From Nocardioides albidus (GTDB lineage: Bacteria; Actinomycetota; Actinomycetes; Propionibacteriales; Nocardioidaceae): a stretch of DNA of 64,000 nucleotides. The position numbers and the translations under genes were made by a program. Below are positions 16,264-34,538 of the stretch, piece after piece (position 1 is the stretch's first letter; each line of letters starts with the position of its first letter). The stretch lies in NCBI RefSeq assembly GCF_006335005.1, contig NZ_VDMP01000023.1, positions 82,577 through 146,576 on the forward strand. Direction: 5' to 3'. Below the pieces are notes generated by a model. The model saw nothing but the letters and a program-made list of their open reading frames with translations, was not told the origin of the DNA and made no database searches.

Positions 16264-17676
16264 TCACGCCCGGTCGCGGGTACGCCGGGCCAGCTCGGCG
16301 AGGGCGGCGGGGAAGATCGAGGCGGGCGGCGTGACCAGGCCGGCGCCGACCTGGCCGACGCCGGCGACCTTGCCGGCCATGCCGGTGTTGATCTGCGGCA
16401 GGATGCCCGTCCGGCACACCGAGCTCACGTCGATGCCGGTGGCGGCGCCGGCGAAGTCGAGCACGGGGATCGGCCAGCGGTCGTTCTCGCCGATGGTGAT
16501 CTCCCGCATCCGGCGGCTGGTGGCCAGCGCGTCGGGGACGGTGCCGCCGACGAAGCGCACGATGGCGGGGGCGGCGGCCATCGCGAAGCCGCCGATGCCG
16601 GCGGTCTCGGTGATGGCCGAGTCGCCGATGTCGGGGTTGGCGTCCTCGGGGCCGTAGTCGCCGAGGAACAGGCCGTCGGCGAGCTGGGCCGGACCGGTGA
16701 ACCACTGGTCGCCGGTGCCGGAGACCTGGATGCCGAAGTCGGTGCCGTTGCGGGCCATCGCGACGACCATCGTCGAGCCCGGGATGTCGCGGGCCGCATC
16801 GAGGGCCAGCTTGCACGCGGGCATCGCGACGTTGAGGAAGAAGTGGTCGTTGCCCCCGACGAACGCGAAGGCCTCGGCGATCTCGTCGGCGGACCGCGAC
16901 GAGCGGACCAGGGAAGGCGCGAGATCGCGCATCAGCATCAGCGTCCCGGCGCGGTTGCGGTTGTGCGCCTCGTCGCCCATCTGCAGCATCTGGCCGAGGA
17001 TCGCGGTCGCGTCGACCGGCCCGGCCGCCGCGACCGCCTCGCCGAGCAGCGGCCCGAGGACGTCGCGCATCCAGTGCAGCCGCGCGAGCACCTCGGGGCC
17101 GTAGGCGCCATAGCGCAGCACCTTGCCGAGACCCTCGTTGAGCGAGCAATAGGTACGACGACCGGTGGCGGGATCCTCCAGCACGAACATCCACATGGAG
17201 GGCGACACGACCCCGGCCATCGGACCGACCGCGCTGCGGTGGTGGCAGGGCTCCAGCGACACCTCGGTGCCCGACTCGAAGAGGGCGGCGGCGTCCTCGG
17301 GGTCCTCGACCAGTCCCTCGAACGCGGCGGCGCCCAGGAGCGCCCCGCGCAGCGGGCCGGAGGTGCGCGCCCACTCGATCGGCGGTCCGGCGTGCAGGAA
17401 CTGGCCCCTCTCGAGCCCGAGCAGCTCGGAGGCGGGAGCGACGCCGACGAGCATCGCCTGCACGTCGAGCATCCGGGACACGGCGAGCGCGTTGGCGTCG
17501 CGGCGCAGCGGGTCGGCGGCGACGGTCGCGAGGTCGTCCGCGGTGCCGTCCATCGGTGGTGTCCACTCGACCCGCTCGACGGGGACCGCCTGGTCGGCGA
17601 CGGCGGTGGCGAACATGTCCGCGCCGACGGCGGCGACGGCGGCGGGAGCGGTGCTGGGCAGCAGTGCATGGGTCAT
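16264..17676 (-). CDS. allG: DUF1116 protein, AllG-like subunit of an FdrA-type carbamoyltransferase
   Basis: 470-residue DUF1116 protein homologous to E. coli YlbE/AllG, a subunit of the oxamate carbamoyltransferase that phosphorolyses oxalurate to oxamate plus carbamoyl phosphate. Conserved features include the RNRAGTLMLMRDLAP segment, ARNGTDFGIQVSGTGDQWF and the C-terminal TGIDVSSVCRTGILPQINTG. The ATG overlaps the fdrA stop by 4 nt, so DUF2877, FdrA and DUF1116 are made as one coupled unit. No ureidoglycolate or allantoin genes are visible, so the substrate may differ from E. coli. A ureidomalonate-type substrate is my inference from the neighbouring barbiturase-family gene. Confidence 0.85.
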   Translation of the reverse strand: MTHALLPSTAPAAVAAVGADMFATAVADQAVPVERVEWTPPMDGTADDLATVAADPLRRDANALAVSRMLDVQAMLVGVAPASELLGLERGQFLHAGPPIEWARTSGPLRGALLGAAAFEGLVEDPEDAAALFESGTEVSLEPCHHRSAVGPMAGVVSPSMWMFVLEDPATGRRTYCSLNEGLGKVLRYGAYGPEVLARLHWMRDVLGPLLGEAVAAAGPVDATAILGQMLQMGDEAHNRNRAGTLMLMRDLAPSLVRSSRSADEIAEAFAFVGGNDHFFLNVAMPACKLALDAARDIPGSTMVVAMARNGTDFGIQVSGTGDQWFTGPAQLADGLFLGDYGPEDANPDIGDSAITETAGIGGFAMAAAPAIVRFVGGTVPDALATSRRMREITIGENDRWPIPVLDFAGAATGIDVSSVCRTGILPQINTGMAGKVAGVGQVGAGLVTPPASIFPAALAELARRTRDRA

Positions 17677-19151
17677 CGGGCGCCTCCGGCGGTGACATGG
17701 GTGAGAGCGATCGCGCGGCGGGTGGCCGCGGCGTTGGACAGGTGGACCTCGGCGCCGGCGGCGGCCAGCGCCTCGGCCTGACGGGACAGCCCCTGCGGGT
17801 CGCTCGAGGTGCCGACGCAGGCGACGACGACCGGCAGGTCGCGGGCGGCCCGCGCCGCGGCGATGGCCGGCGCGAGCTCGGCGGCCGGGTCGTCCTGGGC
17901 GCCGTGGCCGAGGACGACGTCCATCAGGATCACCGCCGTCTCGGGGTCGGCGGCGACCTTGGCGAGGTGCTCGAGGCGCAGGGTCGGGTCGATCATGGGG
18001 TGCGCCCGGCCGCGGGTCAGGCCGTCGTCGCCGAAGTCGATCATCACGTGGCCGTCGGCGACGAGACTCGCGTCGAGCGCGAGCTCCGGGGACAGCGGGA
18101 TGTTGCTGCGGATCGGGCCGAGGCTCTCCGCCGCGAGCAGCATCGCCTCGTCGCACAGCGTGCCTCCGACGAACAGCCCGCGCAGGGCGCTGCCGCCCGC
18201 CGGGGCGGCGGGGGAGCCCCACACCGGCCACGCCGGTACGGCGACGCCGAGGTCGCCGAGCAGCGCCTCGGTCTGCGTGGTGAGGTCGGGCTGACCGGCG
18301 CCGAGCAGCGCGAAGCGCACCGGCGTGCCGAGGTCGGCGGCGTACTTCTCGACGGCGGCGGCCACCTCGGCCGCCGGGGGCTTGGACACGACGACGACGT
18401 GCTCGACCGACGGGTCGGCGTCGAGACGGTCCAGCGCCGTGCGGGTGGAGATGCCGCCGATCGCTGCGGACAGGTCGCGCCCACCCACGCCGAGGGCAGC
18501 GGCGACGCCGACTCCGGCGGCGTCGAGGAGGGCCAGGACCTGCTGGCAGCCGGTGCCGGAGGCGGCGACGATGCCGACCCGCCCCGGGGTGACGGTGTTG
18601 GCGAAGCCGAGGCCCACGCCGCCGACGACGGCGGTCCCGCAGTCGGGCCCCATCACGAGCAGGCCGCGGTCGCGGGCGATCCGCTTCATCGCGAGCTCCT
18701 GCTCGACCGGGACGTTGTCGCTGAAGATCATCACGTCGACGCCGGCGTCCAGGGCGTCCATCGCCTCGACCAGCGCGGAGGCGCCGGGCACGGACACCAG
18801 CGCGAGATCCGCGCCGGCGCGGCGCAGGGCCGAGGCCGTCGTCCGCGGCGGCGCGGCGACCTCGCCGCCCGAGGAGCCCTTGCGGGCCGCGGCCAGCGCG
18901 GCGTCCACCGCGGCGAGGGCCGCCGGCAGCGCCGACTCGTCCTCGAGCCGCAGCGCCACCACCATGTCGTTGGCGCCGGCCGGGGGCAGCGTGAAGCCCA
19001 TGCCCTGCAGCACCTCCACGTTGAGCTCGGTGGCCATCGCCACCTGTGCGGCGGCGACGCCGGGGGTGGCGGCGACGTCGCGGCTGACCTGCAGCAGCGC
19101 CACGCTGTCGGCGTACGCGCCGGGTCGGATCTCGACGTGCTGGTGCGTCAT
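17673..19151 (-). CDS. fdrA: FdrA (AllF-like) carbamoyltransferase subunit, acyl-CoA synthetase-like fold
   Basis: 492-residue FdrA-family protein with a succinyl-CoA synthetase alpha-like architecture. The N-terminal region includes MATELNVEVLQGMGF. A CoA-binding-like Rossmann segment holds VMGPDCGTAVVGGVGLGFANTV, and a C-terminal ligase-like half includes ALLGAGQPDLTTQTEALL. In E. coli, FdrA/AllF with AllG and AllH forms the oxamate transcarbamylase of anaerobic allantoin use. Overlaps at both ends (4 nt with DUF2877 and with DUF1116) mean the three subunits are synthesised together. The carbamate kinase needed to turn carbamoyl phosphate into ATP is at 33603. The exact carbamoyl donor is not known from sequence. 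Confidence 0.88.
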   Translation of the reverse strand: MTHQHVEIRPGAYADSVALLQVSRDVAATPGVAAAQVAMATELNVEVLQGMGFTLPPAGANDMVVALRLEDESALPAALAAVDAALAAARKGSSGGEVAAPPRTTASALRRAGADLALVSVPGASALVEAMDALDAGVDVMIFSDNVPVEQELAMKRIARDRGLLVMGPDCGTAVVGGVGLGFANTVTPGRVGIVAASGTGCQQVLALLDAAGVGVAAALGVGGRDLSAAIGGISTRTALDRLDADPSVEHVVVVSKPPAAEVAAAVEKYAADLGTPVRFALLGAGQPDLTTQTEALLGDLGVAVPAWPVWGSPAAPAGGSALRGLFVGGTLCDEAMLLAAESLGPIRSNIPLSPELALDASLVADGHVMIDFGDDGLTRGRAHPMIDPTLRLEHLAKVAADPETAVILMDVVLGHGAQDDPAAELAPAIAAARAARDLPVVVACVGTSSDPQGLSRQAEALAAAGAEVHLSNAAATRRAIALTHVTAGGAR

Positions 19152-19930
19152 CGAGGGCTCCCTTCAAGGGCTTGATGGCTGGTGGAGTGGGTGGAGGCGG
19201 TCGAGGAGGTGGGTGCGAGGCGGGCGCCGAGGAGCATCCCGGCGCCCGAGGTGTGGCCCACGGCCAGCAGGGCGGCGACCGCGTCGGCGTCGCCCGTCGC
19301 GAGGGCTGCGCGGAAGGGCGCGATCGCCTCGCCGGCGACGGCATGGCGCAGCAGGGCCGCGGAGAGGCTGGTGGTGCGGGGGAGGCGGGCCTCGACCGCG
19401 GCGGCGACGGCGCTCGGGTCGCCGCCGTGTGCGCGGGTCGCGACCAGCCAGCCGGCGAGCACGTCGTCGCCGACCGGGGTGAGCCCGTCGCCGCGTCCGA
19501 CCAGGATCGGTACGGCGCCCGGGTCGCCCGCGGCGAGCAGGTCGAGGGCGTCGGCGGGCAGCTGGTCGCGGGCGGGGGAGAGGTCGGCGAGGAGCAACTC
19601 GTCCAGAGCGGGTGCGGACGCGAGCCGCGGGACCGCGAAGGAGACCAGCCGGGTCACCGCGACGCGCAACGGTCCGATGCGCAGCAGGCCGTCGCCCACG
19701 ACGGCCGGGTCGCCGACCGCCACCTCGGGGAGGTCCGGCAGCGTCGTCGCGATCGCGCACGGCACGTGCACGGCGCCCCGGGCGAGGACGCCGACGACCC
19801 CGGTCGGGAGCTCGGCGTACACGGCCCGACGTCCCGCGTGCACGACGCCGCCGGGGACGGCCGGGCCGTGCAGCAGGGCGCGCAGCGCGGACGATCCGGC
19901 TCCCGCCACCTGCATCTCGGCCCTCTGCAC
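19148..19930 (-). CDS. allH: DUF2877 protein, AllH-like carbamoyltransferase subunit
   Basis: 260-residue DUF2877 protein homologous to E. coli YlbF/AllH. The hallmark is VGRGDGLTPVGDDVLAGWL, and the C-terminal GHTSGAGMLLGA is also typical. The GTG at 19930 is preferred over ATG 19915 because a -10-like TAGCGT lies 7 nt before it on the minus strand. It heads the operon that continues into fdrA and DUF1116 and is transcribed divergently from the PucR-type regulator only 35 nt away, so that regulator is the obvious candidate to control it. Confidence 0.85.
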   Translation of the reverse strand: MQRAEMQVAGAGSSALRALLHGPAVPGGVVHAGRRAVYAELPTGVVGVLARGAVHVPCAIATTLPDLPEVAVGDPAVVGDGLLRIGPLRVAVTRLVSFAVPRLASAPALDELLLADLSPARDQLPADALDLLAAGDPGAVPILVGRGDGLTPVGDDVLAGWLVATRAHGGDPSAVAAAVEARLPRTTSLSAALLRHAVAGEAIAPFRAALATGDADAVAALLAVGHTSGAGMLLGARLAPTSSTASTHSTSHQALEGSPR

Positions 19931-19952: not shown

Positions 19953-19958
19953 TATCGT
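19953..19958 (+). promoter_or_regulatory. -10 box for the PucR-type regulator gene
   Basis: TATCGT lies 7 nt before ATG 19966, matching the leaderless pattern seen repeatedly in this window. It supports the longer start of the regulator. Just downstream, TTGCC (19976) and GGCAA (about 19999) form a spaced inverted repeat that could be an autoregulatory site. Confidence 0.5.
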
Positions 19959-19965
19959 GCATCGA

Positions 19966-21279
19966 ATGGTGAGCATTGCCAACGTGCAGGCAGAAGTCGG
20001 GCAAGAGTTGATAGGCACCGCAGGGGGCGGCATCGCGGACGATGGCGTCATGGACACCGACGAGCTCGCCGAGGCGCTCGCGCAGCTCGTGCTGGCCGGC
20101 GCCGACCTCGCCGACCTGGTCGCCGCGATCGGCGACGCCCTCGACGTGCACGTCGCCGTCACGACCACCGACGGCCGCGAGCGTGCCGCGCGGATCGACG
20201 AGGCGATGCGGGAGCGGATCACCGCCGCCGGCCTGACCGACGAGACCGGGCGTCTGCGCGTCGAGTGGCTCGGCGACCGCGGCGGTCACGAGGGCCAGCC
20301 GGTGCCGGGCGCCCACGTCCACCGCGAGCCGCTCGCGGCGCCCAACCAGGCGCTCGGGCACCTCGTCGCGATCGCCGAGGGCGACATGGTCCCCCAGCAG
20401 GTCGTCGCGCTGCAGCGGGCGGCCACGGCCGTGTCGCTCTCGATCACCCGCGAGCAGGCCGTCTCGGCGGTGGAGAACAAGTACCGCGGCGACTTCCTGC
20501 GCGACGTCTTCCTCGGCCGCGCGGGCAGTGACGAGTTCGTCCGCGAGCACGTGGTCGGCTTCGGCTGGGACCTGAGCGGCCCGACCGTCGTGCTCGTCGC
20601 GCAGATCGACCCGCAGCCGTCGTACCAGCCGCCGGCCTCGGTGGAGGACCGTCGCCACTGGCAGGAGCGGTTCGCGAACGCCTGGCGCCAGGTGGCGGCG
20701 GCGGTCGACCGGGCGATCCCGATCGCCGACTTCGGGTCCGAGGTGGTGGCGGTGCTGCCGGCCGAGGACCTCGAGGCCACCGCCGCGCTCGTACGACGCC
20801 TGGTGGTCGCCGTCGCGGGCGACAAGGGCGGCGGGCGTCGTCCCTTCACCGCGGGCGTCGGACGGGCGGCCTCGAGCCCGTCCGGGCTGCCCGACAGCTA
20901 CACCCAGGCGCGGCGCGCGCTCGAGGTGGGACGCCGGTTCCGCGGGTCGAGCACGACGACCTGGTTCGACGACCTCGGACTGCACCGCCTGATCGCGATG
21001 GTGCCCGACACCGAGGAGCTGCGGGCGTTCGCGCACGACGTGCTCGGCGAGCTGGCCGGCTCCACCGACGAGGCGATCACCCTGCGCGAGACCCTGCAGG
21101 TGCTGCTCAACACCAACTTCAACGTGGCCGAGGCCGCGCGGACGCAGTTCTTCCACTACAACACGATGCGCTACCGGGTCGGGAAGCTCGAACGGATGCT
21201 GGGCCCGGTCGCGTCCGACCAGAACCTGCGCCTCGACGTCGCGGTCGCGCTCAAGGTCCTCGAGGTCGTCAGCCGATGA
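19966..21279 (+). CDS. PucR/CdaR-family transcriptional regulator
   Basis: 437-residue regulator of the PucR family (purine/pyrimidine and related catabolic control). A GAF-like sensory region follows the N-terminus (LDVHVAVTTTDGRERAARID). A degenerate GGDEF-like domain covers about 190-320 (VAVAGDKGGGRRPFTAGVGRAASS). The C-terminal PucR helix-turn-helix is at about 365-430 (TLQVLLNTNFNVAEAARTQF, then HYNTMRYRVGKLE). Divergence from the FdrA complex and the uraA operon downstream make it the likely controller of both. The start is uncertain. ATG 19966 has a -10 box at leaderless spacing, but the first 28 codons include AT-rich codons (ATT, CAA, TTG, ATA) unlike the rest, so ATG 20050 is a real alternative. 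Confidence 0.85.
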   Translation: MVSIANVQAEVGQELIGTAGGGIADDGVMDTDELAEALAQLVLAGADLADLVAAIGDALDVHVAVTTTDGRERAARIDEAMRERITAAGLTDETGRLRVEWLGDRGGHEGQPVPGAHVHREPLAAPNQALGHLVAIAEGDMVPQQVVALQRAATAVSLSITREQAVSAVENKYRGDFLRDVFLGRAGSDEFVREHVVGFGWDLSGPTVVLVAQIDPQPSYQPPASVEDRRHWQERFANAWRQVAAAVDRAIPIADFGSEVVAVLPAEDLEATAALVRRLVVAVAGDKGGGRRPFTAGVGRAASSPSGLPDSYTQARRALEVGRRFRGSSTTTWFDDLGLHRLIAMVPDTEELRAFAHDVLGELAGSTDEAITLRETLQVLLNTNFNVAEAARTQFFHYNTMRYRVGKLERMLGPVASDQNLRLDVAVALKVLEVVSR

Positions 21280-21398
21280 GCTGAGGCAACTTCCGCCAGC
21301 AGTTCCCCCGGATCCTTTGGCGAATGTGGCCAGTGAGGTGTGATCTGGCCCTCAATAGGTTGGTTGGTCTCGGAGCCCTGCAGTGCACCCCCCAATCC

Positions 21399-21404
21399 AG
21401 GAGG
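21399..21404 (+). promoter_or_regulatory. strong ribosome binding site deciding the permease start
   Basis: AGGAGG 7 nt before ATG 21412. It rules out in-frame starts further upstream (from 21340), which have no such site and would add a hydrophilic tail before the first membrane helix. Confidence 0.8.
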
Positions 21405-21411
21405 ATCCAGC

Positions 21412-22776
21412 ATGTCGATGTTCAAGTGGGAGGTCGTGGACCCGGCGCCCGGCGAACCCGTCGCGCCGCACCAGCGGCTCCCGTGGGGTCGGACCGTCGG
21501 CCTGGGAGCCCAGCACGTCGTCGCGATGTTCGGTGCGACCTTCGTGTTCCCGATCGTCATGGGCCTCGACCCCAACCTCGCGATCATGTTCTCGGGCCTG
21601 TGCACGATCGGCTTCCTGCTGATCTGCAGCAACAAGGTGCCCAGCTACCTCGGCACCAGCGCGTCCTTCGTCGCGGGCGTCGCCGCCATCCGTGCCCAGG
21701 GCGGTGACTCCGCGGACGTCACCGGCGCGATCCTCATCGCAGGCGTGGTCCTCGCCGCGGTCGGCGTCGCCGTCCACTTCGCCGGCTCCGGGCTGATCCA
21801 CAAGATCCTCCCGCCCGCCGTCACCGGCGCCGTCGTGATGCTGATCGGCTTCAACCTCGCCCCGGTCGTCGCGGGGATCTACTGGCCCCAGGACCAGTGG
21901 ATCGCCCTGGCGACCGCGGCGTTCATGGTCTGCGCGGCCGTCCTGCTGCCGGGCTTCTGGTCGCGCATCGCCGTCTTCCTCGCGCTGATCTTCGGCTACG
22001 TGCTGTCGTTCGTCGCCGACAAGACGTTCGGTGCGATCACGTCGGTCACGCCCGTCTCCGGCGGCGAGGCCGTCGAGCACGACCGCGTCTCCTGGGCCGG
22101 CGTGAAGGCGGCCGACTGGATCGGCTTCCCGAGCGGCGACCTCGCCGACGGCGTCTCCGTCGTGCACGGCCCGAGCTTCTCGATGACCTTCATCCTGCTC
22201 GTCCTGCCCGGCGTCATCGCGCTGATCGCCGAGAACACCGGCCACGTCAAGGCGGTCGCAGAGATGACCGGCGAGAACCTCGACCCCTACATGGGCCGGG
22301 CGATCGCCGCGGACGGCGGAGCGACCGCGCTGGCCAGCCTCTTCGGCGGCTCGCCGACCACCACGTACGCCGAGAACATCGGCGTCATGGGGGCGACCAA
22401 GGTCTACTCGACCGCCGCCTACTACGTCGCGGGTCTCGTCGCGATCCTCCTCGGTCTGTGCCCGAAGTTCGGCGCGATCGTCAACGCCACCCCGGGCGGC
22501 GTCCTCGGCGGCATCACCGTCGTCCTCTACGGCATGATCGGCCTCGTCGGCGCCAAGATCTGGGTCGAGAACCGGGTCGACTTCGGCAACCCGATCAACA
22601 TGGTCGGCCTCGCCGGCGGCCTGATCGCCGGCATCGGCGGCGTGACGCTCAAGGTCACCGACGACTTCGAGCTCGGCGGCATCGCCCTCGGCACGATCAT
22701 GGTCATCGTCTTCTTCCACCTCGTGAAGGGACGCAGCGTCGACGCCACGTCGGGAGAGGTGACCAAGCTGTTGTGA
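21412..22776 (+). CDS. uraA: NCS2 nucleobase:cation symporter, uracil permease (UraA) type
   Basis: 454-residue membrane transporter of the NCS2/NAT family with about 12-14 helices, importing a nucleobase with a proton. GTSASFVAGVAAIRAQGG and VTGAVVMLIGFNLAP fit the family. The decisive stretch is TTTYAENIGVMGATKVYS in helix 10, matching UraA-type uracil carriers (Glu in [AG]ENIGVM) and unlike the xanthine/urate carriers, which have an NNGV-type motif there. It is the first gene of a coupled run. Its stop overlaps the GTG of the FAD subunit downstream, so uptake and oxidation are co-expressed. Uracil or thymine is the favoured substrate; xanthine is less likely. Confidence 0.9.
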   Translation: MSMFKWEVVDPAPGEPVAPHQRLPWGRTVGLGAQHVVAMFGATFVFPIVMGLDPNLAIMFSGLCTIGFLLICSNKVPSYLGTSASFVAGVAAIRAQGGDSADVTGAILIAGVVLAAVGVAVHFAGSGLIHKILPPAVTGAVVMLIGFNLAPVVAGIYWPQDQWIALATAAFMVCAAVLLPGFWSRIAVFLALIFGYVLSFVADKTFGAITSVTPVSGGEAVEHDRVSWAGVKAADWIGFPSGDLADGVSVVHGPSFSMTFILLVLPGVIALIAENTGHVKAVAEMTGENLDPYMGRAIAADGGATALASLFGGSPTTTYAENIGVMGATKVYSTAAYYVAGLVAILLGLCPKFGAIVNATPGGVLGGITVVLYGMIGLVGAKIWVENRVDFGNPINMVGLAGGLIAGIGGVTLKVTDDFELGGIALGTIMVIVFFHLVKGRSVDATSGEVTKLL

Positions 22777-23639: not shown

Positions 23640-24144
<505 letters not shown>

Positions 24145-24148
<4 letters not shown>

Positions 24149-27182: not shown

Positions 27183-28573
27183 CCCACCCGGTCTCGGTCG
27201 ACTCGACCGCGCGGGACCAGGCGGCCGCCGTACGTCGTCGCGAGATCTCGGCCCGCGAGCTGCTCGACCTGCACCTGGACCGGATCGCGGAGCGGAACCC
27301 GGAGCTCAACGCGATCGTCTCCCTCGACGAGTCGCGTGCCCGGGCGGGCGCGCTCGCGGCCGATGAGGCGCTGGCCTCGGGCGCGGAGGTGGGGCCGCTG
27401 CACGGCCTGCCGTTCGCGTTCAAGGACACCCACGCGGTGGGCGGTTGGCGCACGACCTACGGCTCCACGGTGATGGCCGACAACGTGCCGGAGCGCGACG
27501 AGCTCATCGTGGAGCGGGTGCGCGGGGCGGGTGCGGTCACGATCGGCAAGACCAATGTGCCGGAGTTCGCGGCCGGGTCGCACACGTTCAACAAGGTCTT
27601 CGGCACGACGCTGAACCCGGTCGATCCCACGCGCTCCGCGGGCGGGTCGAGCGGGGGAGCGGCCTGCGCGCTCGCCGCGGGCATGGTCCCGCTGGCCGAC
27701 GGCTCCGACATGGGCGGCTCGCTGCGCAACCCGGCGTCGTTCTGCGGCGTCGTCGGGATGCGGCCCAGCCTCGGCCGCGTGCCGGAGTGGCCGCTCTACA
27801 ACCAGTGGGAGACCACCTCGGTCGGCGGCCCGATGGCCCGCAACGTCGGGGATCTCGCCCTGTTGCTGTCGGTGATGGCCGGTCCGGATCCTCGGGCGCC
27901 GCAGGCGCTGGGTGATCCGGGCTCGACGTTCGCGTCGCCTGCCGCGGCCTCGTCGGCGGGGCTGCGGGTCGCGCTGAGCGTCGACCTCGGCGGAGCGCTC
28001 GAGGTCGACCACGAGGTCGCAGCGGTGGTCGAGGCCGCTGGCCGTGCACTGGCCGGTGCCGGGGCCGCGGTCGGCTCGGCGTACCCCGACCTGTCGCTCG
28101 CCGAGGACACCTTCCGCACCCTGCGCGCCTGGCACTTCCAGGCCAAGCTGGGCCGCTTGTTGGCCGAGCATCCCGACGCGTTCAAGCCGTCGCTCGCCGA
28201 CAACATCCGGGCGGGGGAGTCCCTCACCGGCGCCGATGTCGCCCGGGCCTACGCCCAGCGCACCGCGCTCTCGGAGACGATGCGGCTGTTCTTCGCGTCG
28301 TACGACGTCCTCGTGCTGCCGGTCTCCCAGGTCCCGCCGTTCCCGGCCGACCAGGAGTTCCCCACCGAGATCAACTCACAACCGATGGCGTCCTACCTCG
28401 ACTGGATGCGGTCGGCGTACTTCATCACCGTCACCGGCTGTCCCGCCATCTCGGTGCCCTTCGGGACCACCGCTGACGGCCTGCCGGTCGGTGTGCAGCT
28501 GGTCGCCCGGCACGGCGCGGACCGTCGGCTGCTCGAGGTGGCGCTGGCGGTCGAGGAGCTGGCGGGCCGCTGA
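27179..28573 (+). CDS. amidase-signature family amidohydrolase
   Basis: 464-residue amidase-signature enzyme with the Ser-cisSer-Lys triad: Lys in FAFKDTHAVGG, GGSSGGAACALAAGMV for the cis-Ser, and GSDMGGSLRNPASFCG for the nucleophile. Cytoplasmic. The ATG overlaps the CoxG stop, so it belongs to the uraA operon. In the inferred pathway it could hydrolyse ureidomalonate to malonate and urea (ureidomalonase) or remove ammonia from malonamate. AtzE-like carboxybiuret hydrolase is another possibility, but no AtzG partner is seen. Specificity cannot be read from sequence in this family. Confidence 0.88.
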   Translation: MTHPVSVDSTARDQAAAVRRREISARELLDLHLDRIAERNPELNAIVSLDESRARAGALAADEALASGAEVGPLHGLPFAFKDTHAVGGWRTTYGSTVMADNVPERDELIVERVRGAGAVTIGKTNVPEFAAGSHTFNKVFGTTLNPVDPTRSAGGSSGGAACALAAGMVPLADGSDMGGSLRNPASFCGVVGMRPSLGRVPEWPLYNQWETTSVGGPMARNVGDLALLLSVMAGPDPRAPQALGDPGSTFASPAAASSAGLRVALSVDLGGALEVDHEVAAVVEAAGRALAGAGAAVGSAYPDLSLAEDTFRTLRAWHFQAKLGRLLAEHPDAFKPSLADNIRAGESLTGADVARAYAQRTALSETMRLFFASYDVLVLPVSQVPPFPADQEFPTEINSQPMASYLDWMRSAYFITVTGCPAISVPFGTTADGLPVGVQLVARHGADRRLLEVALAVEELAGR

Positions 28574-28649: not shown

Positions 28650-30746
28650 ATGAGTGCCATGACAGCGAGGCGGATCAGGATCGGCATCGACACGGGCGGG
28701 ACGTTCACCGACGTCGTGGCGTTCGACGAGGACAGCGGTGAGGTCGTCACCACCAAGACCCCGAGCACGCCGGGCAACCCGGCCGACGGGTTCCTGGCGG
28801 GCATCGACAAGGTGCTCGACATCGCCGGGGCGGAGTTCGCCGACGTCGTCGCCGTCAGTCACGGCACCACGGTCGCGACCAACCAGCTCCTCGAGGGCAA
28901 GGTGGACGCGCTCGGGTTCATCACCACGGCGGGCTACGAGGCGATGCTCGAGATCGCCCGGCAGTCGGTCCCGGACGGCTACGGCAACTCGTACTTCTGG
29001 GTGAAGCCGGACCGGATCGTGCCGCGCGACCTGGTCAAGGGCGTCGGCGGCCGCCTCGACTTCACCGGTGCGGAGCTCCGCCCGTTCGACGAGGCCGAGG
29101 CCCGGGAGACGGCCCGCTGGTTCAAGGCCAAGGGCATCGACACCCTGGGTGTCTGCTTCCTGCACGCCTACGCCAACCCCGCCCACGAGGAGCGGATGCG
29201 CGAGATCATCGCCGAGGAGCACCCGGGCGCCGTGGTCTCCATCTCCAGCGAGGTGCTGCGCGAGTACCGCGAGTACGAGCGCTCGATGACCACCCTGGTC
29301 GACGCCGCGGTCAAGCCCAAGCTGAGCCGCTACGTCACCAACATCAAGGAGCGGCTGGCCACCCAGAGCGGCCGCACCATCCCGTTCTACGTCATGAAGT
29401 CCAACGGCGGCGTGCTCTCGGCCGACGAGGTCGTTCACCAGCCGATCACCACCGTGCTCTCCGGCCCGGCCGCCGGCGCCCTCGGTGCCGCGCTGATCGC
29501 CAAGGTCGCCGGCTTCGACAAGGTGCTCACCTCCGACGGCGGCGGTACGTCGACCGACGTCTCGGTCGTCATCGACGGCGAGCCGACGTTGACCACCGAG
29601 GGCAGCGTGGGCGTCTACCCGTCCAAGATCCCGATGATCGACGTCGTCACCGTCGGCGCGGGCGGAGGCTCGATCGCGTGGCTCTCGCCCGAGGGCACGC
29701 TCAAGGTCGGACCCCACTCGGCCGGCGCCGACCCGGGCCCGATCTGCTACCGCAAGGGCGGCAGCGAGGTCACCATCACCGACGCCCACGTCTTCCTCGG
29801 CCGGATCCCTCCCCACCTGCTCGGTGGCGAGATCCCGCTCGACGTCGACGCGGCGAGCGCGGCGATCCAGCAGTTGGCCGGCAAGCTCGGCATCACCGCC
29901 GAGGCCTGCGCGACCGGCATCCTGGAGATCTCCGCGTGGAACCAGGCCAACGCGCTGCGTCAGGTCACGGTCAAGCGCGGCCTCGACGTCCGCGACTTCA
30001 CCCTCACCACGTTCGGCGGCTCGGGCTCACTGCTGCTGTGCCGGCTGATGGACATCCTCAACGTGCCGACCGTGCTGGTGCCGCCCAACCCGGGCAACGT
30101 CTCGGCGTTCGGCCTACTGACCGTCGACGTCAAGAACGACTACGTGCAGACCCACGTCGCGCTCCAGGAGAACCTCGACCCGGCGGACCTCCAGCAGGAG
30201 TACGACGTCCTCACGGCCCGCGCCGCCGAGGCGCTGAGCAAGGAGGGCTTCGCTCAGGACCAGCACGCCTTCGTGCGGACCGCCGACGTGCGCTACTTCG
30301 GCCAGGCCTTCGAGGTGCGCGTCGGCGTACCGGACGGCCCGGTCACCACGGAGACCCTGGCCACCGTCGCGGACCGCTTCCACGTGGAGCACCGGGTGCT
30401 CTACGGCTACGACTTCTCCGGCGACCCCACCCAGCAGGTCGAGTTCGTCAACCTGCGCGTCTCCGGCGTCGGCCCGATCAAGCGCCCCGAGATCCTGAAG
30501 GCCGGCGCGGCCGGCGCGGTGCCGCAGCCGACCGGCTCGCGCTCGGTCTGCTTCGACGCCGAGGCGGGGTACGTCGAGACGCCGGTCTTCTGGCGCACCG
30601 ACCTGCCCGCCGGCCAGGTGCTCGCGGGCCCGGTGATCATCGAGGAGTTCGGCTCCACCGTGCCCATCCACCCCGGCTTCACGGCCCGGGTCGACGACTA
30701 CGCCAACATCATCGTGACGCGCACCGCGCAGTCGGAGGAGAGCTGA
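28650..30746 (+). CDS. hyuA: hydantoinase/oxoprolinase family subunit HyuA
   Basis: 698-residue HyuA-type subunit of an ATP-dependent hydantoinase/5-oxoprolinase/acetone-carboxylase-like enzyme. It has an acetate kinase-like ATPase fold with IGIDTGGTFTDVVAF at about 11-25, VSHGTTVATNQLLEGK, and SDGGGTSTDVSVV for the second phosphate loop. It acts with HyuB, whose gene starts 1 nt after its stop. The family phosphorylates and opens cyclic imides or lactams, or carboxylates ketones; here a cyclic ureide or imide is suggested by context. The start at ATG 28650 has no clear Shine-Dalgarno; ATG 28659 is possible. Confidence 0.9.
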   Translation: MSAMTARRIRIGIDTGGTFTDVVAFDEDSGEVVTTKTPSTPGNPADGFLAGIDKVLDIAGAEFADVVAVSHGTTVATNQLLEGKVDALGFITTAGYEAMLEIARQSVPDGYGNSYFWVKPDRIVPRDLVKGVGGRLDFTGAELRPFDEAEARETARWFKAKGIDTLGVCFLHAYANPAHEERMREIIAEEHPGAVVSISSEVLREYREYERSMTTLVDAAVKPKLSRYVTNIKERLATQSGRTIPFYVMKSNGGVLSADEVVHQPITTVLSGPAAGALGAALIAKVAGFDKVLTSDGGGTSTDVSVVIDGEPTLTTEGSVGVYPSKIPMIDVVTVGAGGGSIAWLSPEGTLKVGPHSAGADPGPICYRKGGSEVTITDAHVFLGRIPPHLLGGEIPLDVDAASAAIQQLAGKLGITAEACATGILEISAWNQANALRQVTVKRGLDVRDFTLTTFGGSGSLLLCRLMDILNVPTVLVPPNPGNVSAFGLLTVDVKNDYVQTHVALQENLDPADLQQEYDVLTARAAEALSKEGFAQDQHAFVRTADVRYFGQAFEVRVGVPDGPVTTETLATVADRFHVEHRVLYGYDFSGDPTQQVEFVNLRVSGVGPIKRPEILKAGAAGAVPQPTGSRSVCFDAEAGYVETPVFWRTDLPAGQVLAGPVIIEEFGSTVPIHPGFTARVDDYANIIVTRTAQSEES

Positions 30747-30747
30747 C

Positions 30748-32766
30748 ATGTGCCTGAGCTGCCAGACCATCCACAACGGCCCCAGCAGCACAGCGGCCGT
30801 CGGGCACGCCGGTGATGCGGGGACCGGCGCGAAGACCGGCTCGCGTCGGGCGCCCACGCAGTTCCCGTTCGGCACCCTGACCGCCGACGCCGGCCGCAGC
30901 GCCGACCCCGTCCTGGTCGAGATCGTCCAGGGCTCGCTGGCCGCCGTCGAGCACGAGGTCGAGACCGCCATCGCGCGCACCAGCCGCAGCCCGATGATCC
31001 GCGACGCCCACGACTTCCGGGCCGGGATCCACGACCGGCTGCTGCGCAAGCTGACCGGCCGCTCGTACTCCGCGCTCGTGCACCCCGTCGCCCGGGACTT
31101 CCCGATCGAGGAGATGGCTGAGGGCGACGTCTTCTTCCACAACGACGTCTACCTCTCCGAGGGCGGCATCGGCCACCTGCCCGACCTGTGCGTCACCGTC
31201 CCCGTCTTCGCCGGCCCGACGGGGGAGCGCCGCGTCGTCGCCTTCATCCAGGCGTTCGGCCACCACGACGACATCGGCGGCGCGGTGCCGGGCTCGATGC
31301 CCTCACACGCCACCAGCGTGTTCGAGGAGGGCCTCGCCGTCCCGCCCATCAAGCTGTGGGACGCCGGCGTGCCCAACAAGGCGGCGCTGCGGATCATGAC
31401 GCGCAACTCGCGGATGCCCGAGTCGCTGGCCGCCGACCTGGACGCCGAGTGCTCCGCCTGCCTGATGGGGGCGCGTCGCCTCGGCGAGCTCTTCGACCGG
31501 TACGGCGTCGACACGGTCGAGGCCTGCTTCGACGCGATCATCGACCGCTCCACCGAGACCTACCGCCGCGAGATCCTCTCCAAGATCCCGGTCGGCACCT
31601 GGACCTGGGAGGACTATGCCGAGCACGACGGCGTCGACGAGCCGCAGCTGCACACGCAGCGGATCACCCTGACCCGCACCGCGGCCGACGACCCGGAGGG
31701 CGAGCGGATCATCCTCGACTTCGACGGCACCGGCCCGCAGGCCAAGGGCCCGATCAACCACTGCGGCGACTACTCCGACGGCGTCTTCCTCAAGAAGTGG
31801 CTGGCGCCCATCCTGCGCAACCTGGCCGACACCCCGGAGCGGATGGCCGAGCTCGACGTCAACGAGGGCGTCGTGCCGCTGATCGAGATGCGGTTCCCGC
31901 CGCCGGGCACGCTGCTGACGCCGGTCTTCCCGGCGCCGACGAACGCCCGCACCTTCGTCATCCTGCGCCTGCTCGGCGTGCTGGCCGGCGTGATCGCCAA
32001 GGCGGTCGACGGCAAGATGCCCGCCGACCAGGAGACGATCCGCTACACCGGTGTGTACGGCGAGGACCTCGAGGGCCGCTCGTACCTCATGCGCGAGGTG
32101 CTCGGCGGCGGCTCCGGCGGCCGCTACTACGCCGACGGCGAGGACACCATCCACGTCGTCCCGGACTCGCGGAACCTCCCCACGGAGTTCACCGAGTCGC
32201 GCTTCCCGTTCGTGGTCGAGTCGCTCGGCCTCGCCATGGACTCCGGCGGCGCCGGCCGGTTCCGCGGCGGTCTGGGCTACGAGAAGCACATCCGGATGCT
32301 GAAGGACGCCCACTTCATGTCCATCGCGGACCGCTCGATCCTCGCCTGCTGGGGCGTGAAGGGCGGCAAGGCCGGCAGGCCGTTCGAGGTCACCGTCGAC
32401 CCCGGCGGCCCGACCGAGCGCGAGGTCGACGCCCTCGCCGACTCCGAGCCCGTCCTCGCCGGCGAGACGATCCGGATCCGCACCACCGGCGGCGGCGGCT
32501 GGGGGAGTCCGCTCGAGCGCGACCCGGCGCTCGTCGTGCGCGACGTCGTGTGGCGCAAGGTCTCCCCGGAGGCGGCGCTCGCCGACTACGGCGTCGTCCT
32601 CACCGGATCGCTCGACGACGACACCCTCGGGTACGACGCCGACGCGACCGCCGCGGAGCGCGCCGGCCGTCCGGTGCCCGCCGAGGACGACGCCTTCTTC
32701 GACCGCGGCCCGGGCTACGGGGTGCTCGCCGGGGGCGCGCCGTTCGCCACGGTGGACGTCCTCTGA
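30748..32766 (+). CDS. hyuB: hydantoinase B/oxoprolinase family subunit HyuB
   Basis: 672-residue HyuB-type subunit partnering HyuA. The family core has DPVLVEIVQGSLAAVEHEVE, then SRSPMIRDAHDF and AEGDVFFHNDVYLSEGGIGHLPD with the metal-binding region, GGGSGGRYYADGEDTIH, and a C-terminal GGGGWGSPLERDP. The first 50 residues are unusual: MCLSCQTIHNG with a CxxC pair, then a Ser/Thr/Gly-rich linker, before the family domain begins. They may bind a metal. The gene lies 1 nt after hyuA, so the pair is coupled. The cyclic substrate is unknown. Confidence 0.9.
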   Translation: MCLSCQTIHNGPSSTAAVGHAGDAGTGAKTGSRRAPTQFPFGTLTADAGRSADPVLVEIVQGSLAAVEHEVETAIARTSRSPMIRDAHDFRAGIHDRLLRKLTGRSYSALVHPVARDFPIEEMAEGDVFFHNDVYLSEGGIGHLPDLCVTVPVFAGPTGERRVVAFIQAFGHHDDIGGAVPGSMPSHATSVFEEGLAVPPIKLWDAGVPNKAALRIMTRNSRMPESLAADLDAECSACLMGARRLGELFDRYGVDTVEACFDAIIDRSTETYRREILSKIPVGTWTWEDYAEHDGVDEPQLHTQRITLTRTAADDPEGERIILDFDGTGPQAKGPINHCGDYSDGVFLKKWLAPILRNLADTPERMAELDVNEGVVPLIEMRFPPPGTLLTPVFPAPTNARTFVILRLLGVLAGVIAKAVDGKMPADQETIRYTGVYGEDLEGRSYLMREVLGGGSGGRYYADGEDTIHVVPDSRNLPTEFTESRFPFVVESLGLAMDSGGAGRFRGGLGYEKHIRMLKDAHFMSIADRSILACWGVKGGKAGRPFEVTVDPGGPTEREVDALADSEPVLAGETIRIRTTGGGGWGSPLERDPALVVRDVVWRKVSPEAALADYGVVLTGSLDDDTLGYDADATAAERAGRPVPAEDDAFFDRGPGYGVLAGGAPFATVDVL

Positions 32767-32783
32767 GGGATCGGGACTCCGCG

Positions 32784-33512
32784 GTGAAGATCGCGATCCT
32801 CGGGGGATCCGGCAAGACCGGCCGCGCCGTCGGCGCAGCCCTGGCCCGAGCGGGCGTGGCGACACGCCCCCTGGGCCGGGCGGCGTTCGACGACCTGCCG
32901 GCCGCCCTGGCCGGCGCCGACGCCGTCCAGGTCATCGCGCCGAACCTGCACCCCGACGAGCCGTCGTACGTCGCCGCGGTCCTCGCGGCCGCGGCCGAGG
33001 TCGGCGTCGGGCGGGTGAGCTACCACTCGGTGGCCTCGCCCTACGTCCCGGCGATGCCGCACCACCTCGGCAAGGCGGAGTCGGAGGACCTGGTCCGCCG
33101 CTCCGGCCTCGACTGGACGATCCTGCAGCCCTGCGCCTACGCGCAGAACCTGCTGCCGGCCGTCCGCTCCGGCGAGCTCGCGGTGCCCTACTCCGTCGAC
33201 GCGCCCTTCGGCCTGGTCGACCTCCGCGACGTCGCCGAGGCGACGGCCGTGGTGCTGACCGGGGACGGTCACGTAGGCGCGACGTACGAGCTCGGCGGCC
33301 CGGCCCTGGTCTCGGTCGCCGACGTGGCCGCCGCCGCGGGCATCCCCGCTCGGCGGGTCCTCGCGCCGGACGACGCGCACCCCTGGCTGCGCGCCATGTT
33401 CGACTACTACGACGCCCACGGCCTGCCCACCGGCGGCGTCCCGCTGCGCGCGCTGCTCGGCCGCCCGCCGACCGCGGTCGCAGCGGTGCTCACCCGCGAT
33501 CTCGGGGCGTGA
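32784..33512 (+). CDS. NAD(P)-binding NmrA/SDR-like protein
   Basis: 242-residue atypical short-chain dehydrogenase/NmrA-like protein. The Rossmann glycine motif ILGGSGKTGRAVG is at the N-terminus, VSYHSVASPY lies in the middle and WTILQPCAYAQNLL is typical of NmrA/quinone reductase 2-like proteins. A canonical SDR catalytic YxxxK is not evident; the nearest candidate is HHLGKAE. A GTG start with GAGGGA upstream sits 17 nt after hyuB, so it is probably the last gene of the hyu run. It could be a redox sensor or a reductase acting on a pathway intermediate; no specific role can be assigned. Confidence 0.78.
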   Translation: MKIAILGGSGKTGRAVGAALARAGVATRPLGRAAFDDLPAALAGADAVQVIAPNLHPDEPSYVAAVLAAAAEVGVGRVSYHSVASPYVPAMPHHLGKAESEDLVRRSGLDWTILQPCAYAQNLLPAVRSGELAVPYSVDAPFGLVDLRDVAEATAVVLTGDGHVGATYELGGPALVSVADVAAAAGIPARRVLAPDDAHPWLRAMFDYYDAHGLPTGGVPLRALLGRPPTAVAAVLTRDLGA

Positions 33513-33536: not shown

Positions 33537-33590
33537 CTTCTCCGCCCGCGTTGGCTGTTCCTCACGATGAACCGTGGTGATCCGGCTCAC

Positions 33591-33596: not shown

Positions 33597-33602
33597 CGCT
33601 GC

Positions 33603-34538
33603 ATGAGGATCCTGCTGGCGCTCGGCGGCAACGCCATGACGTCCCCGGACGGCAAGGCCCGTCCCGAGGACCAGATCGCTGCCGCGACCGAGGCGATGGA
33701 GGCCGTGGCGGACCTCGTCGCGGCCGGTGTCGACGTCGTCATCACCCACGGCAACGGCCCGCAGGTCGGCAACCTGCTCGTCAAGAACGAGCTGGCCGCG
33801 AGCGTCGTACCGCCCGTGCCGCTGGACTGGTGCGGAGCCCAGACCCAGGGCACCCTCGGCGACATCCTGATGAACGCGCTCGACGGGGCGCTGGCGGCGC
33901 GCGGCCTGACCCGGCCCACCGCGGCTCTCGTCACCCGGACCCTCGTCGACGCCGACGACCCGGCGTTCGCGAAGCCGAGCAAGCCCGTGGGCCGCTACCT
34001 GTCGGCCGACGAGGCGCGCACGATGATCGAGCACGGCGAGACCTGGGAGGACCGCGGCGAGCGGGGATGGCGGCGGATGGTCGCCTCGCCCGAGCCGCTG
34101 GAGGTCCTCGACGCCCCCGCCGCGATCGCCCTCGTGGACGCCGGCTTCGTCGTGATCGCCAACGGCGGCGGAGGAATCCCGACCGTGCGGCACGCCGACG
34201 GGCGGCTGTCCGGCGTCGAGGCGGTCATCGACAAGGACCTCGGCGCGGCCCTGCTGGCCCACGCGATCGAGGTCGACCTGCTCGTCATCGCCACCGACGT
34301 CGCGCACGCCGTTCTCGGCTTCGGTACGCCGGAGGCCCGCGACATCGGCGAGGTGACGCTCGACGAGATGCGCGCCTACGCCGCCGAGGGCCACTTCGCC
34401 GGCGGCTCGATGGGCCCCAAGGTCGACGCGGTCTGCCGCTTCGTCGCCGACTCCGGCCGCCGCGGCGTCATCACCGATCTCGGCAGCATCCTCGCGGCCG
34501 CCGACGGTCGCGCCGGAACGATCGTCACCCCCCACTGA
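33603..34538 (+). CDS. arcC: carbamate kinase
   Basis: 311-residue carbamate kinase converting carbamoyl phosphate and ADP to ATP, CO2 and ammonia. It shows LLALGGNAM at the start, THGNGPQVGNLL, VIANGGGGIPTV, the KDLGAALLA region and a C-terminal GGSMGPKVDA. Cytoplasmic. There is no arginine deiminase or ornithine carbamoyltransferase nearby, so its carbamoyl phosphate must come from another reaction. The FdrA/DUF1116/DUF2877 complex at 16264-19930 is the obvious source, as with the kinase of the E. coli allantoin cluster. The barbiturase-family gene follows 36 nt downstream, probably in the same transcript. Confidence 0.95.
   Translation: MRILLALGGNAMTSPDGKARPEDQIAAATEAMEAVADLVAAGVDVVITHGNGPQVGNLLVKNELAASVVPPVPLDWCGAQTQGTLGDILMNALDGALAARGLTRPTAALVTRTLVDADDPAFAKPSKPVGRYLSADEARTMIEHGETWEDRGERGWRRMVASPEPLEVLDAPAAIALVDAGFVVIANGGGGIPTVRHADGRLSGVEAVIDKDLGAALLAHAIEVDLLVIATDVAHAVLGFGTPEARDIGEVTLDEMRAYAAEGHFAGGSMGPKVDAVCRFVADSGRRGVITDLGSILAAADGRAGTIVTPH

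What the first reader, a model, noticed from the sequence alone, without database searches (positions are those of the whole stretch)
16264..34538. Energy-conserving cleavage of ureidomalonate by an FdrA/DUF1116/DUF2877 complex plus carbamate kinase
The three subunits match E. coli AllF/AllG/AllH, which phosphorolyse oxalurate to oxamate and carbamoyl phosphate. No ureidoglycolate dehydrogenase, allantoate or allantoin gene is in the window. Instead there is a barbiturase-family enzyme whose product, ureidomalonate, is the one-carbon homologue of oxalurate. Phosphorolysis would give malonamate plus carbamoyl phosphate. The carbamate kinase at 33603, with no arginine-deiminase genes around it, would then make ATP, and the amidase at 27179 could deaminate malonamate. 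I know of no description of such a branch.
Basis: inference. Interest (0 to 1): 0.88.

Follow-up and report, generated by a model that had tools for sequence, protein, structure and literature searches.

The report
Barbiturase-linked carbamoyl-phosphate-forming pyrimidine breakdown cluster
A soil actinobacterium carries a gene set that probably breaks down uracil and thymine through barbituric acid and then, instead of releasing urea, cuts the opened ring with phosphate so that part of its energy is recovered as ATP, and nearly all barbiturase-bearing relatives examined keep the same genes.

Summary
The window encodes AllG/AllF/AllH (16264-19930, minus), a carbamate kinase (33603-34538) and, just past the given end, a barbiturase (34575-35681) with the exact barbiturase signature N194/H324/K328/V348/S349; it scores far closer to a solved barbiturase than to cyanuric acid hydrolases.

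In 394 class genomes, window-like AllG and barbiturase co-occur in 76, with one exception each way, over 16 families and 35 genera. Carbamate kinase directly precedes barbiturase in 80 of 80 loci. The barbiturase-linked AllG sequences form their own clade, apart from E. coli AllG and YahG. 24 of 52 barbiturase genomes in the genus have no allantoinase above cut-off; the own genome's allantoin genes lie on another contig, and no AllD-family gene was found.

Independently, proteobacterial plasmids join AllFGH and carbamate kinase to cyanuric acid hydrolase, once probably the trzD of an atrazine degrader. That enzyme's product is the aza-analogue of ureidomalonate.

Most likely AllFGH phosphorolyses ureidomalonate to malonamate and carbamoyl phosphate, and carbamate kinase makes ATP. 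The linkage is shown; the reaction is inferred. HyuAB is unexplained.

The parts
16264..17676 (-). AllG (DUF1116, PF06545) homologue, third gene of the allHFG operon
   Evidence: Pfam AllG 320.6 bits; PDB 3clq 390 bits; in one clade with AllG of other barbiturase genomes
17673..19151 (-). AllF (FdrA, succinyl-CoA-synthetase-alpha-like) homologue
   Evidence: PDB 3dmy FdrA 241 bits; 4-base overlap with both neighbours
19148..19930 (-). AllH (DUF2877, PF11392) homologue
   Evidence: Pfam AllH 70.9 bits, cut-off 25
19957..21279 (+). PucR-family regulator, divergent from allHFG
   Evidence: GGDEF_2 + HTH_30; same divergent position in loci
21340..22776 (+). NCS2 nucleobase transporter, nearest to RutG/uracil permease models (below their cut-offs)
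22773..26553 (+). molybdenum hydroxylase set 1 (FAD 22773-23639, 2Fe-2S 23636-24148, MoCo 24145-26553): candidate uracil/thymine dehydrogenase
   Evidence: function inferred from context
26550..27182 (+). CoxG-like protein
27179..28573 (+). amidase-signature protein: candidate malonamate amidohydrolase; rival: ureidomalonase
   Evidence: same slot holds an amidase in 19 and a nitrilase-family protein in 2 of 21 named loci
28650..30746 (+). HyuA-like subunit (hydantoinase/oxoprolinase A); role unknown
30748..32766 (+). HyuB-like subunit; role unknown
32763..33512 (+). NmrA-like NAD(P)-binding protein (start approximate)
   Evidence: neighbours
33603..34538 (+). carbamate kinase
   Evidence: PRK12352 294.5 bits, cut-off 266, and TIGR00746 327 bits, cut-off 358; PDB carbamate kinases
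34575..35681 (+). barbiturase
   Evidence: PDB 5hwe Barbiturase 670 bits against 317 bits or less for cyanuric acid hydrolases; 84.6% identity to 5hwe; signature N194 H324 K328 V348 S349
35935..40459 (+). molybdenum hydroxylase set 2 (2Fe-2S, MoCo, FAD) plus second CoxG; seen beside barbiturase in 3 of the 80 named loci
9079..14467 (-). BMP-type ABC transporter (permease, ATPase, substrate-binding protein), probable nucleoside uptake
   Evidence: specificity inferred
14543..16263 (+). cytidine deaminase (14543-14956) and pyrimidine-nucleoside/thymidine phosphorylase (14953-16263)

Best explanation
This is an oxidative pyrimidine-breakdown cluster in which the urea-forming step is replaced by an energy-conserving one. 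Nucleosides are taken up and turned into uracil and thymine (transporters, cytidine deaminase, phosphorylase: families shown, roles inferred). A molybdenum hydroxylase oxidises uracil to barbiturate (inferred). Barbiturase opens the ring to ureidomalonate (enzyme identity shown by residues and closest solved structure). The AllF-AllG-AllH complex then phosphorolyses the acyl-urea, ureidomalonate + Pi to malonamate + carbamoyl phosphate (inferred from family chemistry and linkage). Carbamate kinase converts carbamoyl phosphate + ADP to ATP + NH3 + CO2 (family shown, direction inferred). The amidase, or a nitrilase-family enzyme in the same slot elsewhere, deaminates malonamate to malonate (inferred).
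For: Barbiturase identity. Co-occurrence: in the genus 52 of 52 barbiturase genomes have AllH and 1 of 36 others does, that one being 84% complete with a contig that ends inside the cluster; in 394 class genomes 76 have both barbiturase and AllG at 60% identity or more, one has barbiturase alone, one AllG alone; 25 of 25 non-Nocardioides genomes tested (25 of the 33 such loci) have AllH. Linkage: carbamate kinase upstream of barbiturase on the same strand within 500 bases in 80 of 80 loci; gene order kept in Nocardioides, Pseudonocardia, Terrabacter and Janibacter, and in two blocks in Embleya. Co-occurrence survives separation: in 8 genomes the two lie 65 kb to 1.7 Mb apart on one contig. Not allantoin: no AllD-family gene in the genome; 24 of 52 barbiturase genomes have no allantoinase above cut-off; the own genome's allantoin cluster has uricase, AllE, allantoinase and glyoxylate carboligase on another contig. 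Clades: 12 AllG sequences of barbiturase genomes plus that of G031 form one supported clade; E. coli AllG groups with two genomes, in one of which an allantoinase lies about 9 kb away. Independent recurrence: on plasmids AllFGH and carbamate kinase stand with cyanuric acid hydrolase (signature RTRGG), and no HyuA, HyuB, amidase or nitrilase match was found in the fetched plasmid stretches, so the ring opener's product is the natural ureide there. E. coli AllFGH is a demonstrated oxamate carbamoyltransferase (PMC11326118).
Against: No biochemistry. Urea-forming ureidomalonase is a described enzyme of this pathway (Soong 2001, cited in a passage of PMC3758960; the organism, Rhodococcus erythropolis, is recalled), and I could not examine that genome. 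The amide hydrolase present in all visible slots of the named loci could be that enzyme. Carbamoyltransferase equilibria favour carbamoylation (PMC4016543), so phosphorolysis needs pulling by carbamate kinase. E. coli AllFGH was assayed only in reverse with oxamate (PMC11326118). HyuAB is a core neighbour without a role in this scheme. The own genome has urease, so urea would not be a dead end here. One 100%-complete genome (G369) has barbiturase but no AllH or AllG, and no carbamate kinase match in the 20 kb around it. AllH is weakly conserved (37.5% over 128 residues to E. coli AllH).
Confidence: 0.7

Rival explanations
1. The amidase (or the nitrilase-family protein in its slot) is the classical ureidomalonase: ureidomalonate is hydrolysed to malonate and urea, and AllFGH with carbamate kinase handles another ureide, for example a product of HyuAB or of the thymine branch.
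For: Ureidomalonase is a known activity next to barbiturase (PMC3758960 passages). An amide hydrolase sits before HyuA in all 21 named loci where the slot is visible: amidase 19, nitrilase family 2. HyuAB is a core neighbour (HyuB in 62 of 80 loci).
Against: On cyanuric acid plasmids AllFGH and carbamate kinase accompany the ring opener with no HyuA, HyuB, amidase or nitrilase match in the fetched stretches. 40 of 52 barbiturase genomes in the genus have no clear urease, against 18 of 36 without barbiturase (not corrected for relatedness). It leaves the near-perfect pairing of AllFGH with barbiturase needing a second, unnamed ureide.
Confidence: 0.18
2. AllFGH is a standing oxamate carbamoyltransferase of purine breakdown that happens to sit in a mixed purine/pyrimidine cluster.
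For: Sequence family. Only oxalurate/oxamate chemistry has been shown for the family in the papers I saw (PMC11326118). The genome has an allantoin cluster.
Against: No AllD-family gene in the genome; 24 of 52 barbiturase genomes have no allantoinase above cut-off; AllG tracks barbiturase, and barbiturase does not associate with allantoinase; separate clade from E. coli AllG.
Confidence: 0.06
3. The pathway is as proposed, but the main substrate is the thymine-derived methyl homologue (ureido-methylmalonate), feeding methylmalonate.
For: A pyrimidine-nucleoside/thymidine phosphorylase is in the adjoining operon and a MeaB gene is at 3735-4733.
Against: Barbiturase is described as acting on barbituric acid (PMC3758960); no MeaB match lies in the fetched barbiturase loci.
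Confidence: 0.05

Closest known systems
E. coli AllFGH-AllK (oxamate carbamoyltransferase plus carbamate kinase; Kim and Kim 2024, PMC11326118)
   Same: Three homologous subunits plus carbamate kinase; same proposed chemistry, acyl-urea + Pi to amide + carbamoyl phosphate.
   Different: Window proteins are 39% (AllF), 49% (AllG) and 37.5% over 128 residues (AllH) identical; different clade; linked to barbiturase and pyrimidine genes, not to allantoin genes; proposed substrate one carbon longer.
Classical oxidative pyrimidine pathway (uracil dehydrogenase, barbiturase, ureidomalonase; cited in PMC3758960)
   Same: Oxidation to barbiturate and ring opening by barbiturase.
   Different: The last step is proposed to be phosphorolysis with ATP gain instead of hydrolysis to urea and malonate.
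E. coli YahDEFG-YahI (unknown function)
   Same: AllH/AllF/AllG/carbamate-kinase homologues in one cluster.
   Different: Separate AllG clade; the own genome carries a second copy of this type on C18 with an ankyrin protein.
TrzD/AtzD cyanuric acid hydrolases
   Same: Same protein family as barbiturase; on some plasmids also linked to AllFGH and carbamate kinase.
   Different: Signature RTRGG instead of NHKVS; about 46% identical; opens cyanuric acid, not barbiturate.
Ureidoglycine carbamoyltransferase of Rubrobacter (PMC4016543 passages) and E. coli YgeW (function unknown, PMC11326118)
   Same: Rubrobacter enzyme: ureide phosphorolysis paired with a carbamate kinase gene.
   Different: Relatives of ATCase/OTCase; AllFGH is reported to show no similarity to that family (PMC11326118).

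Membership tests
Barbiturase (group VI of the AtzD family, Peat 2013) | Asn195/His321/Lys325/Val345/Ser-Ala346 (AtzD numbering) = Asn194/His324/Lys328/Val348/Ser349 (Bar numbering) | tested here: met
   N194 H324 K328 V348 S349 in the window protein, at identical numbering (signature from PMC3758960)
Barbiturase (group VI of the AtzD family, Peat 2013) | Hydrolyses barbiturate, not cyanuric acid | not testable with these tools
   Nearest solved protein is 5hwe, named Barbiturase, 84.6% identical
Cyanuric acid hydrolase (AtzD/TrzD) | Arg195/Thr321/Arg325/Gly345/Gly346 signature | tested here: not met
   All five positions differ, although NCBIfam NF052395 is passed
AllFGH-type carbamoyltransferase | All three subunits encoded together | tested here: met
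   PF11392, FdrA-like, PF06545, overlapping genes
AllFGH-type carbamoyltransferase | Carbamate kinase linked | tested here: met
   33603-34538 in the same cluster; next to barbiturase in 80 of 80 loci
Oxamate carbamoyltransferase (EC 2.1.3.5) sensu stricto | Serves allantoin/oxalurate breakdown (ureidoglycolate dehydrogenase present) | tested here: not met
   No PF02615 match in the own genome, 96% complete; allantoin cluster on another contig with no AllF or AllG match in the 27 kb fetched
Oxamate carbamoyltransferase (EC 2.1.3.5) sensu stricto | Converts oxalurate/oxamate | not testable with these tools
   Needs purified complex
Ureidomalonase (as role of the amidase) | Urea-forming hydrolysis of ureidomalonate | not testable with these tools
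   Amidase family only; the listings pointed to no sequenced ureidomalonase
Malonamidase E2 (as role of the amidase) | Close sequence relation to malonamidase E2 | tested here: inconclusive
   87 bits to 1ock, weaker than GatA (207 bits) and urethanases (187 bits)

The most novel reading that the evidence does not exclude
AllFGH-like complexes are a general class of acyl-urea phosphorylases that work behind ring-opening amidohydrolases: ureidomalonate behind barbiturase in actinobacteria, and 1-carboxybiuret or biuret behind cyanuric acid hydrolase on proteobacterial plasmids, probably including the trzD plasmid of an atrazine degrader. Bacteria would then recover ATP from barbiturate and from s-triazine herbicide rings, by a route that none of my paper searches listed.
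Probability: 0.5. Interest if true: 0.88.

Novelty: new variant of a known kind. Interest (0 to 1): 0.8.

Why it matters
It gives a testable gene-level answer to how ureidomalonate is broken down in nearly all barbiturase-bearing actinobacteria of the sample, predicts ATP gain where the described pathway has urea release, and proposes new substrates for a three-subunit carbamoyltransferase family whose first member was identified in 2024 (PMC11326118). It also offers a candidate for uracil dehydrogenase (molybdenum hydroxylase set 1, which NCBIfam names a CO dehydrogenase). The parallel module beside cyanuric acid hydrolase suggests an unrecognised end of atrazine breakdown, with practical interest for bioremediation.

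Tried and rejected
Cyanuric acid hydrolase reading of the window enzyme (NCBIfam name): rejected on residues and closest solved structure.

Allantoin reading: rejected because no AllD-family gene was found, AllG does not track allantoinase, and the allantoin cluster is elsewhere.

Purine reading from the 'Xan_ur_permease' label: the NCBIfam best models are RutG and uracil permease, both below cut-off.

CO dehydrogenase reading of molybdenum hydroxylase set 1 (NF040766): the AYxCSFR motif (recalled as typical of true CO dehydrogenase) was not found in either large subunit. The substrate stays open.

An argument I dropped on checking: I had counted the replacement of the amidase by a nitrilase-family protein as evidence against a ureidomalonase role. 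One search shows an amide hydrolase in every visible slot of the named loci, which fits both readings, so I lowered the main reading from 0.72 to 0.70 and raised the ureidomalonase rival from 0.15 to 0.18.

Considered, not done: regulatory motif search between split loci, complex modelling, structure prediction. Malonamidase E2 as proof of the amidase's role: too weak.

Limits of counts: Fisher values ignore relatedness. The 77 'barbiturase' class genomes are 82 family hits minus five whose fetched sequences lack the signature; the signature was read in only some of the 77, and two of them (G192, G372) are fragments. A label printed by the script ('signature or score>455') overstates this: no score cut was applied. 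For G258, G265, G507 and G287 the letter at one position differed between two alignments, so only 'not barbiturase-like' is claimed. G085's 26-bit urease match was left out of the urease count. In one search several of the 129 rows may be the same gene reached through two collections. One search was given 25 of the 33 non-Nocardioides loci; I left out eight, among them short contigs and metagenome bins, and Pimelobacter.

Full report
Anatomy. The minus-strand operon allH-allF-allG (19930 down to 16264) overlaps by four bases at each junction. AllH matches PF11392 (70.9 bits) and AllF the Ligase_CoA and CoA_binding families; AllG matches PF06545 (320.6 bits). Divergent from it runs a plus-strand series: PucR regulator, NCS2 transporter, molybdenum hydroxylase (FAD, 2Fe-2S and MoCo subunits), CoxG, amidase, HyuA, HyuB, NmrA-like, carbamate kinase, AtzD/barbiturase-family protein, then a second molybdenum hydroxylase and CoxG. 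Beyond allG lie pyrimidine-nucleoside phosphorylase, cytidine deaminase and a BMP-type ABC transporter. The transporter's best named models are RutG and uracil permease, both below their cut-offs. The whole stretch reads as pyrimidine salvage and breakdown; the roles of transporters and hydroxylases are inferred.

Which ring opener. Peat et al. 2013 (PMC3758960, passages read) give residues that separate cyanuric acid hydrolase (R195, T321, R325, G345, G346) from barbiturase (N194, H324, K328, V348, S349 in Bar numbering). The window protein has N194, H324, K328, V348 and S349 at exactly those numbers. Its best PDB match is 5hwe, Barbiturase, 670 bits, against 317 bits or less for cyanuric acid hydrolases, with 84.6% identity. 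Of 129 rows aligned from fetched loci, the window included, 119 carry NHKVS, 3 NHKVA and 1 NYKVS; six others are not barbiturase-like. The NCBIfam name 'cyanuric acid amidohydrolase' is therefore doubtful here.

Co-occurrence in the genus. Among 145 relatives 52 have the AtzD family and 56 have AllH. Within the 88 genomes of the genus, 52 of 52 with barbiturase have AllH and 1 of 36 without it does. That one, G031, is 84% complete and its AllFGH contig ends after the transporter. Of 54 barbiturase genes, 48 share a contig with an AllH, 47 of them within 50 kb, median 24 kb. G013 has two barbiturases and two AllFGH sets in two clusters. Three genomes outside the genus have AllH without barbiturase (G115, G119, G141); their AllG sequences fall in the E. 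coli AllG or YahG clades.

Co-occurrence across the class. Of 394 genomes 82 have the AtzD family and 80 have AllH. By AllH the table is 73 both, 9 AtzD only, 7 AllH only. Five of the nine have fetched sequences that are not barbiturase-like, so they act as a control: AtzD relatives without the barbiturase signature lack AllH. With AllG itself, genomes with AllG at 60% identity or more to the window number 77, some by fragments, and the remaining AtzD-family genomes number 77; 76 have both, G369 has barbiturase only, G273 (80% complete) AllG only. The 76 span 16 families and 35 genera. In 8 of the 48 genomes with both on one contig they lie 65 kb to 1.7 Mb apart, and in 28 they are on different contigs, so the pairing is not only physical linkage. 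Fisher values ignore relatedness. G369 is a real exception: a 100%-complete genome with a barbiturase (NHKVA), no AllH or AllG found, and no carbamate kinase match in 20 kb.

Carbamate kinase. In 80 of 80 named loci found by barbiturase (the best 80 of 530 relatives), carbamate kinase lies directly upstream of barbiturase on the same strand with a gap under 500 bases. Of the 33 non-Nocardioides loci among them I gave 25 to a genome search (Terrabacter, Knoellia, Janibacter, Pedococcus, Aeromicrobium, Pseudonocardia and others), and 25 of 25 have AllH. The order AllGFH, PucR, transporter, hydroxylase, CoxG, HyuAB, carbamate kinase, barbiturase is kept in Terrabacter, Pseudonocardia and Janibacter, and in two blocks in Embleya.

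Not allantoin. The genome has no PF02615 (AllD family) match. It has an allantoin cluster on contig C26: urate oxidase, hydroxyisourate hydrolase, OHCU decarboxylase, ureidoglycine aminohydrolase, allantoinase and glyoxylate carboligase, the glyoxylate branch. No AllF or AllG match lies in the 27 kb fetched there. Across the genus 24 of 52 barbiturase genomes have no allantoinase above its cut-off, and barbiturase does not associate with it (allantoinase in 28 of 52 with, 26 of 36 without barbiturase).

Clades. In trees of AllG built from the loci in hand (26 rows, 29), the sequences from barbiturase genomes together with G031 form one clade (support 100/99 and 100/100). E. coli AllG groups with G115 and G141; in G115 an allantoinase lies about 9 kb away. 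E. coli YahG groups with the second copy found in the window's own genome and with G014, G082 and G119.

Independent recurrence. Citrobacter freundii plasmid pRHBSTW-00342_2 carries ring-opening amidohydrolase, NCS2 symporter, DUF2877, FdrA, DUF1116, carbamate kinase and a LysR gene in a row. 49 plasmid records in nine genera match this operon and 47 hold at least 80% of it; no E. coli genome of that collection matches. Aminobacter (Chelatobacter) sp. SR38 plasmid pSR8 has FdrA, DUF1116, ring-opening amidohydrolase, carbamate kinase, an amidohydrolase-family protein and, after a BMP transporter, DUF2877. Its genome paper places atzB, atzC and trzD on the 197-kb contig, the size of pSR8, and the strain was grown on atrazine as sole nitrogen source (PMC8407692, passages); that this ring opener is the trzD is my inference. 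Both ring openers have the cyanuric acid hydrolase signature RTRGG, and their AllG proteins fall outside the barbiturase clade. 1-Carboxybiuret, HOOC-NH-CO-NH-CO-NH2, differs from ureidomalonate, HOOC-CH2-CO-NH-CO-NH2, only by NH for CH2. No match to the window's HyuA, HyuB or amidase or to the nitrilase was found in the fetched plasmid stretches, so the ring opener's product is the natural substrate. This is the strongest argument that AllFGH relatives act on what the ring opener makes. A 2025 paper reports allFGHK beside biuret and triuret genes in comammox bacteria and reads it as oxalurate breakdown (PMC12625717, passages).

Amide hydrolase and downstream. In the 21 named loci where the slot between CoxG and HyuA is visible it holds the amidase in 19 and a nitrilase-family protein in 2; the nitrilase family (PF00795) also follows CoxG in Janibacter, a second Terrabacter and Embleya. 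G063 has no amidase in the slot but a 51% homologue next to barbiturase. Two unrelated amide hydrolases in one slot fit malonamate to malonate, and equally a ureidomalonase. CoA-transferase family III occurs in 33 of 80 loci and a fused AccD/AccA-like carboxyltransferase in 14 of 80; the CoA-transferase's nearest models, all below cut-off, act on glutarate, oxalate and mesaconate. This suggests malonate to malonyl-CoA to acetyl-CoA in those genomes (inference).

Energetics and doubts. Carbamoyltransferases favour carbamoylation at equilibrium (PMC4016543), so carbamate kinase must pull the reaction. E. coli AllFGH was assayed only in reverse with oxamate, Km 36.9 mM (PMC11326118), so its own substrate range is open. 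Urease is present in 12 of 52 barbiturase genomes of the genus against 18 of 36 others, which fits a urea-free route but is uncorrected for relatedness, and the window's genome itself has urease. HyuAB remains unexplained.

Novelty in print. The listings of searches in the held open-access library showed no paper joining barbiturase or cyanuric acid hydrolase to AllFGH and carbamate kinase; I read few of the listed papers. That library lacks most subscription journals, among them the 2012 AtzD-family survey, so a mention there cannot be excluded. Of the papers cited I saw: PMC11326118 abstract, outline, discussion and passages; PMC3758960, PMC4051656, PMC12625717, PMC3364942, PMC4016543 and PMC8407692 passages only.

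Noticed in passing
G000 contig C18, L061 13628-19199 and L062: Second AllFGH-carbamate-kinase set in the same genome, of the E. coli Yah type (ankyrin neighbour), near a trimethylamine-methyltransferase-like gene, a pterin-binding MtrH-like gene, RACo and an MTHFR-like gene: perhaps a methylated ureide is its substrate.
   Followed up: partly
L263 11928-19569; 49 plasmid records, 47 with at least 80% of it: Compact mobile operon cyanuric acid hydrolase, NCS2 symporter, AllH, AllF, AllG, carbamate kinase, LysR on plasmids of nine proteobacterial genera; at least one of these plasmids also bears a beta-lactamase gene.
   Followed up: partly
L266 8956-22768 (Aminobacter sp. SR38 pSR8): Ring-opening amidohydrolase (probably the trzD of an atrazine degrader) flanked by FdrA, DUF1116 and carbamate kinase; possible energy-conserving biuret or carboxybiuret step.
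   Followed up: partly
window 34575-35681 and 24145-26553: NCBIfam NF052395 names the barbiturase a cyanuric acid amidohydrolase, and NF040766 names the molybdenum hydroxylase large subunit an aerobic CO dehydrogenase; both names look doubtful in this context.
   Followed up: partly
window 28650-32766: HyuA/HyuB (hydantoinase/oxoprolinase-like) are core neighbours of barbiturase (HyuB in 62 of 80 loci) with no role in the proposed route.
   Followed up: no
L261 15355-16287, 4803-6296, 6293-7555: In Janibacter a nitrilase-family protein fills the amidase slot, and a CoA-transferase III plus AccDA-like carboxyltransferase sit before carbamate kinase: possible malonate to acetyl-CoA route.
   Followed up: partly
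L212, L213, L214, L215: AtzD-family proteins in actinobacteria with neither barbiturase nor cyanuric acid hydrolase signature, in genomes without AllH: function unknown.
   Followed up: no
G013 (L063-L066): One genome holds two barbiturase-AllFGH clusters of different sequence.
   Followed up: no
L209 (G369): The one complete genome of the class sample with barbiturase and no AllH or AllG; may be where a urea-forming ureidomalonase can be found.
   Followed up: partly
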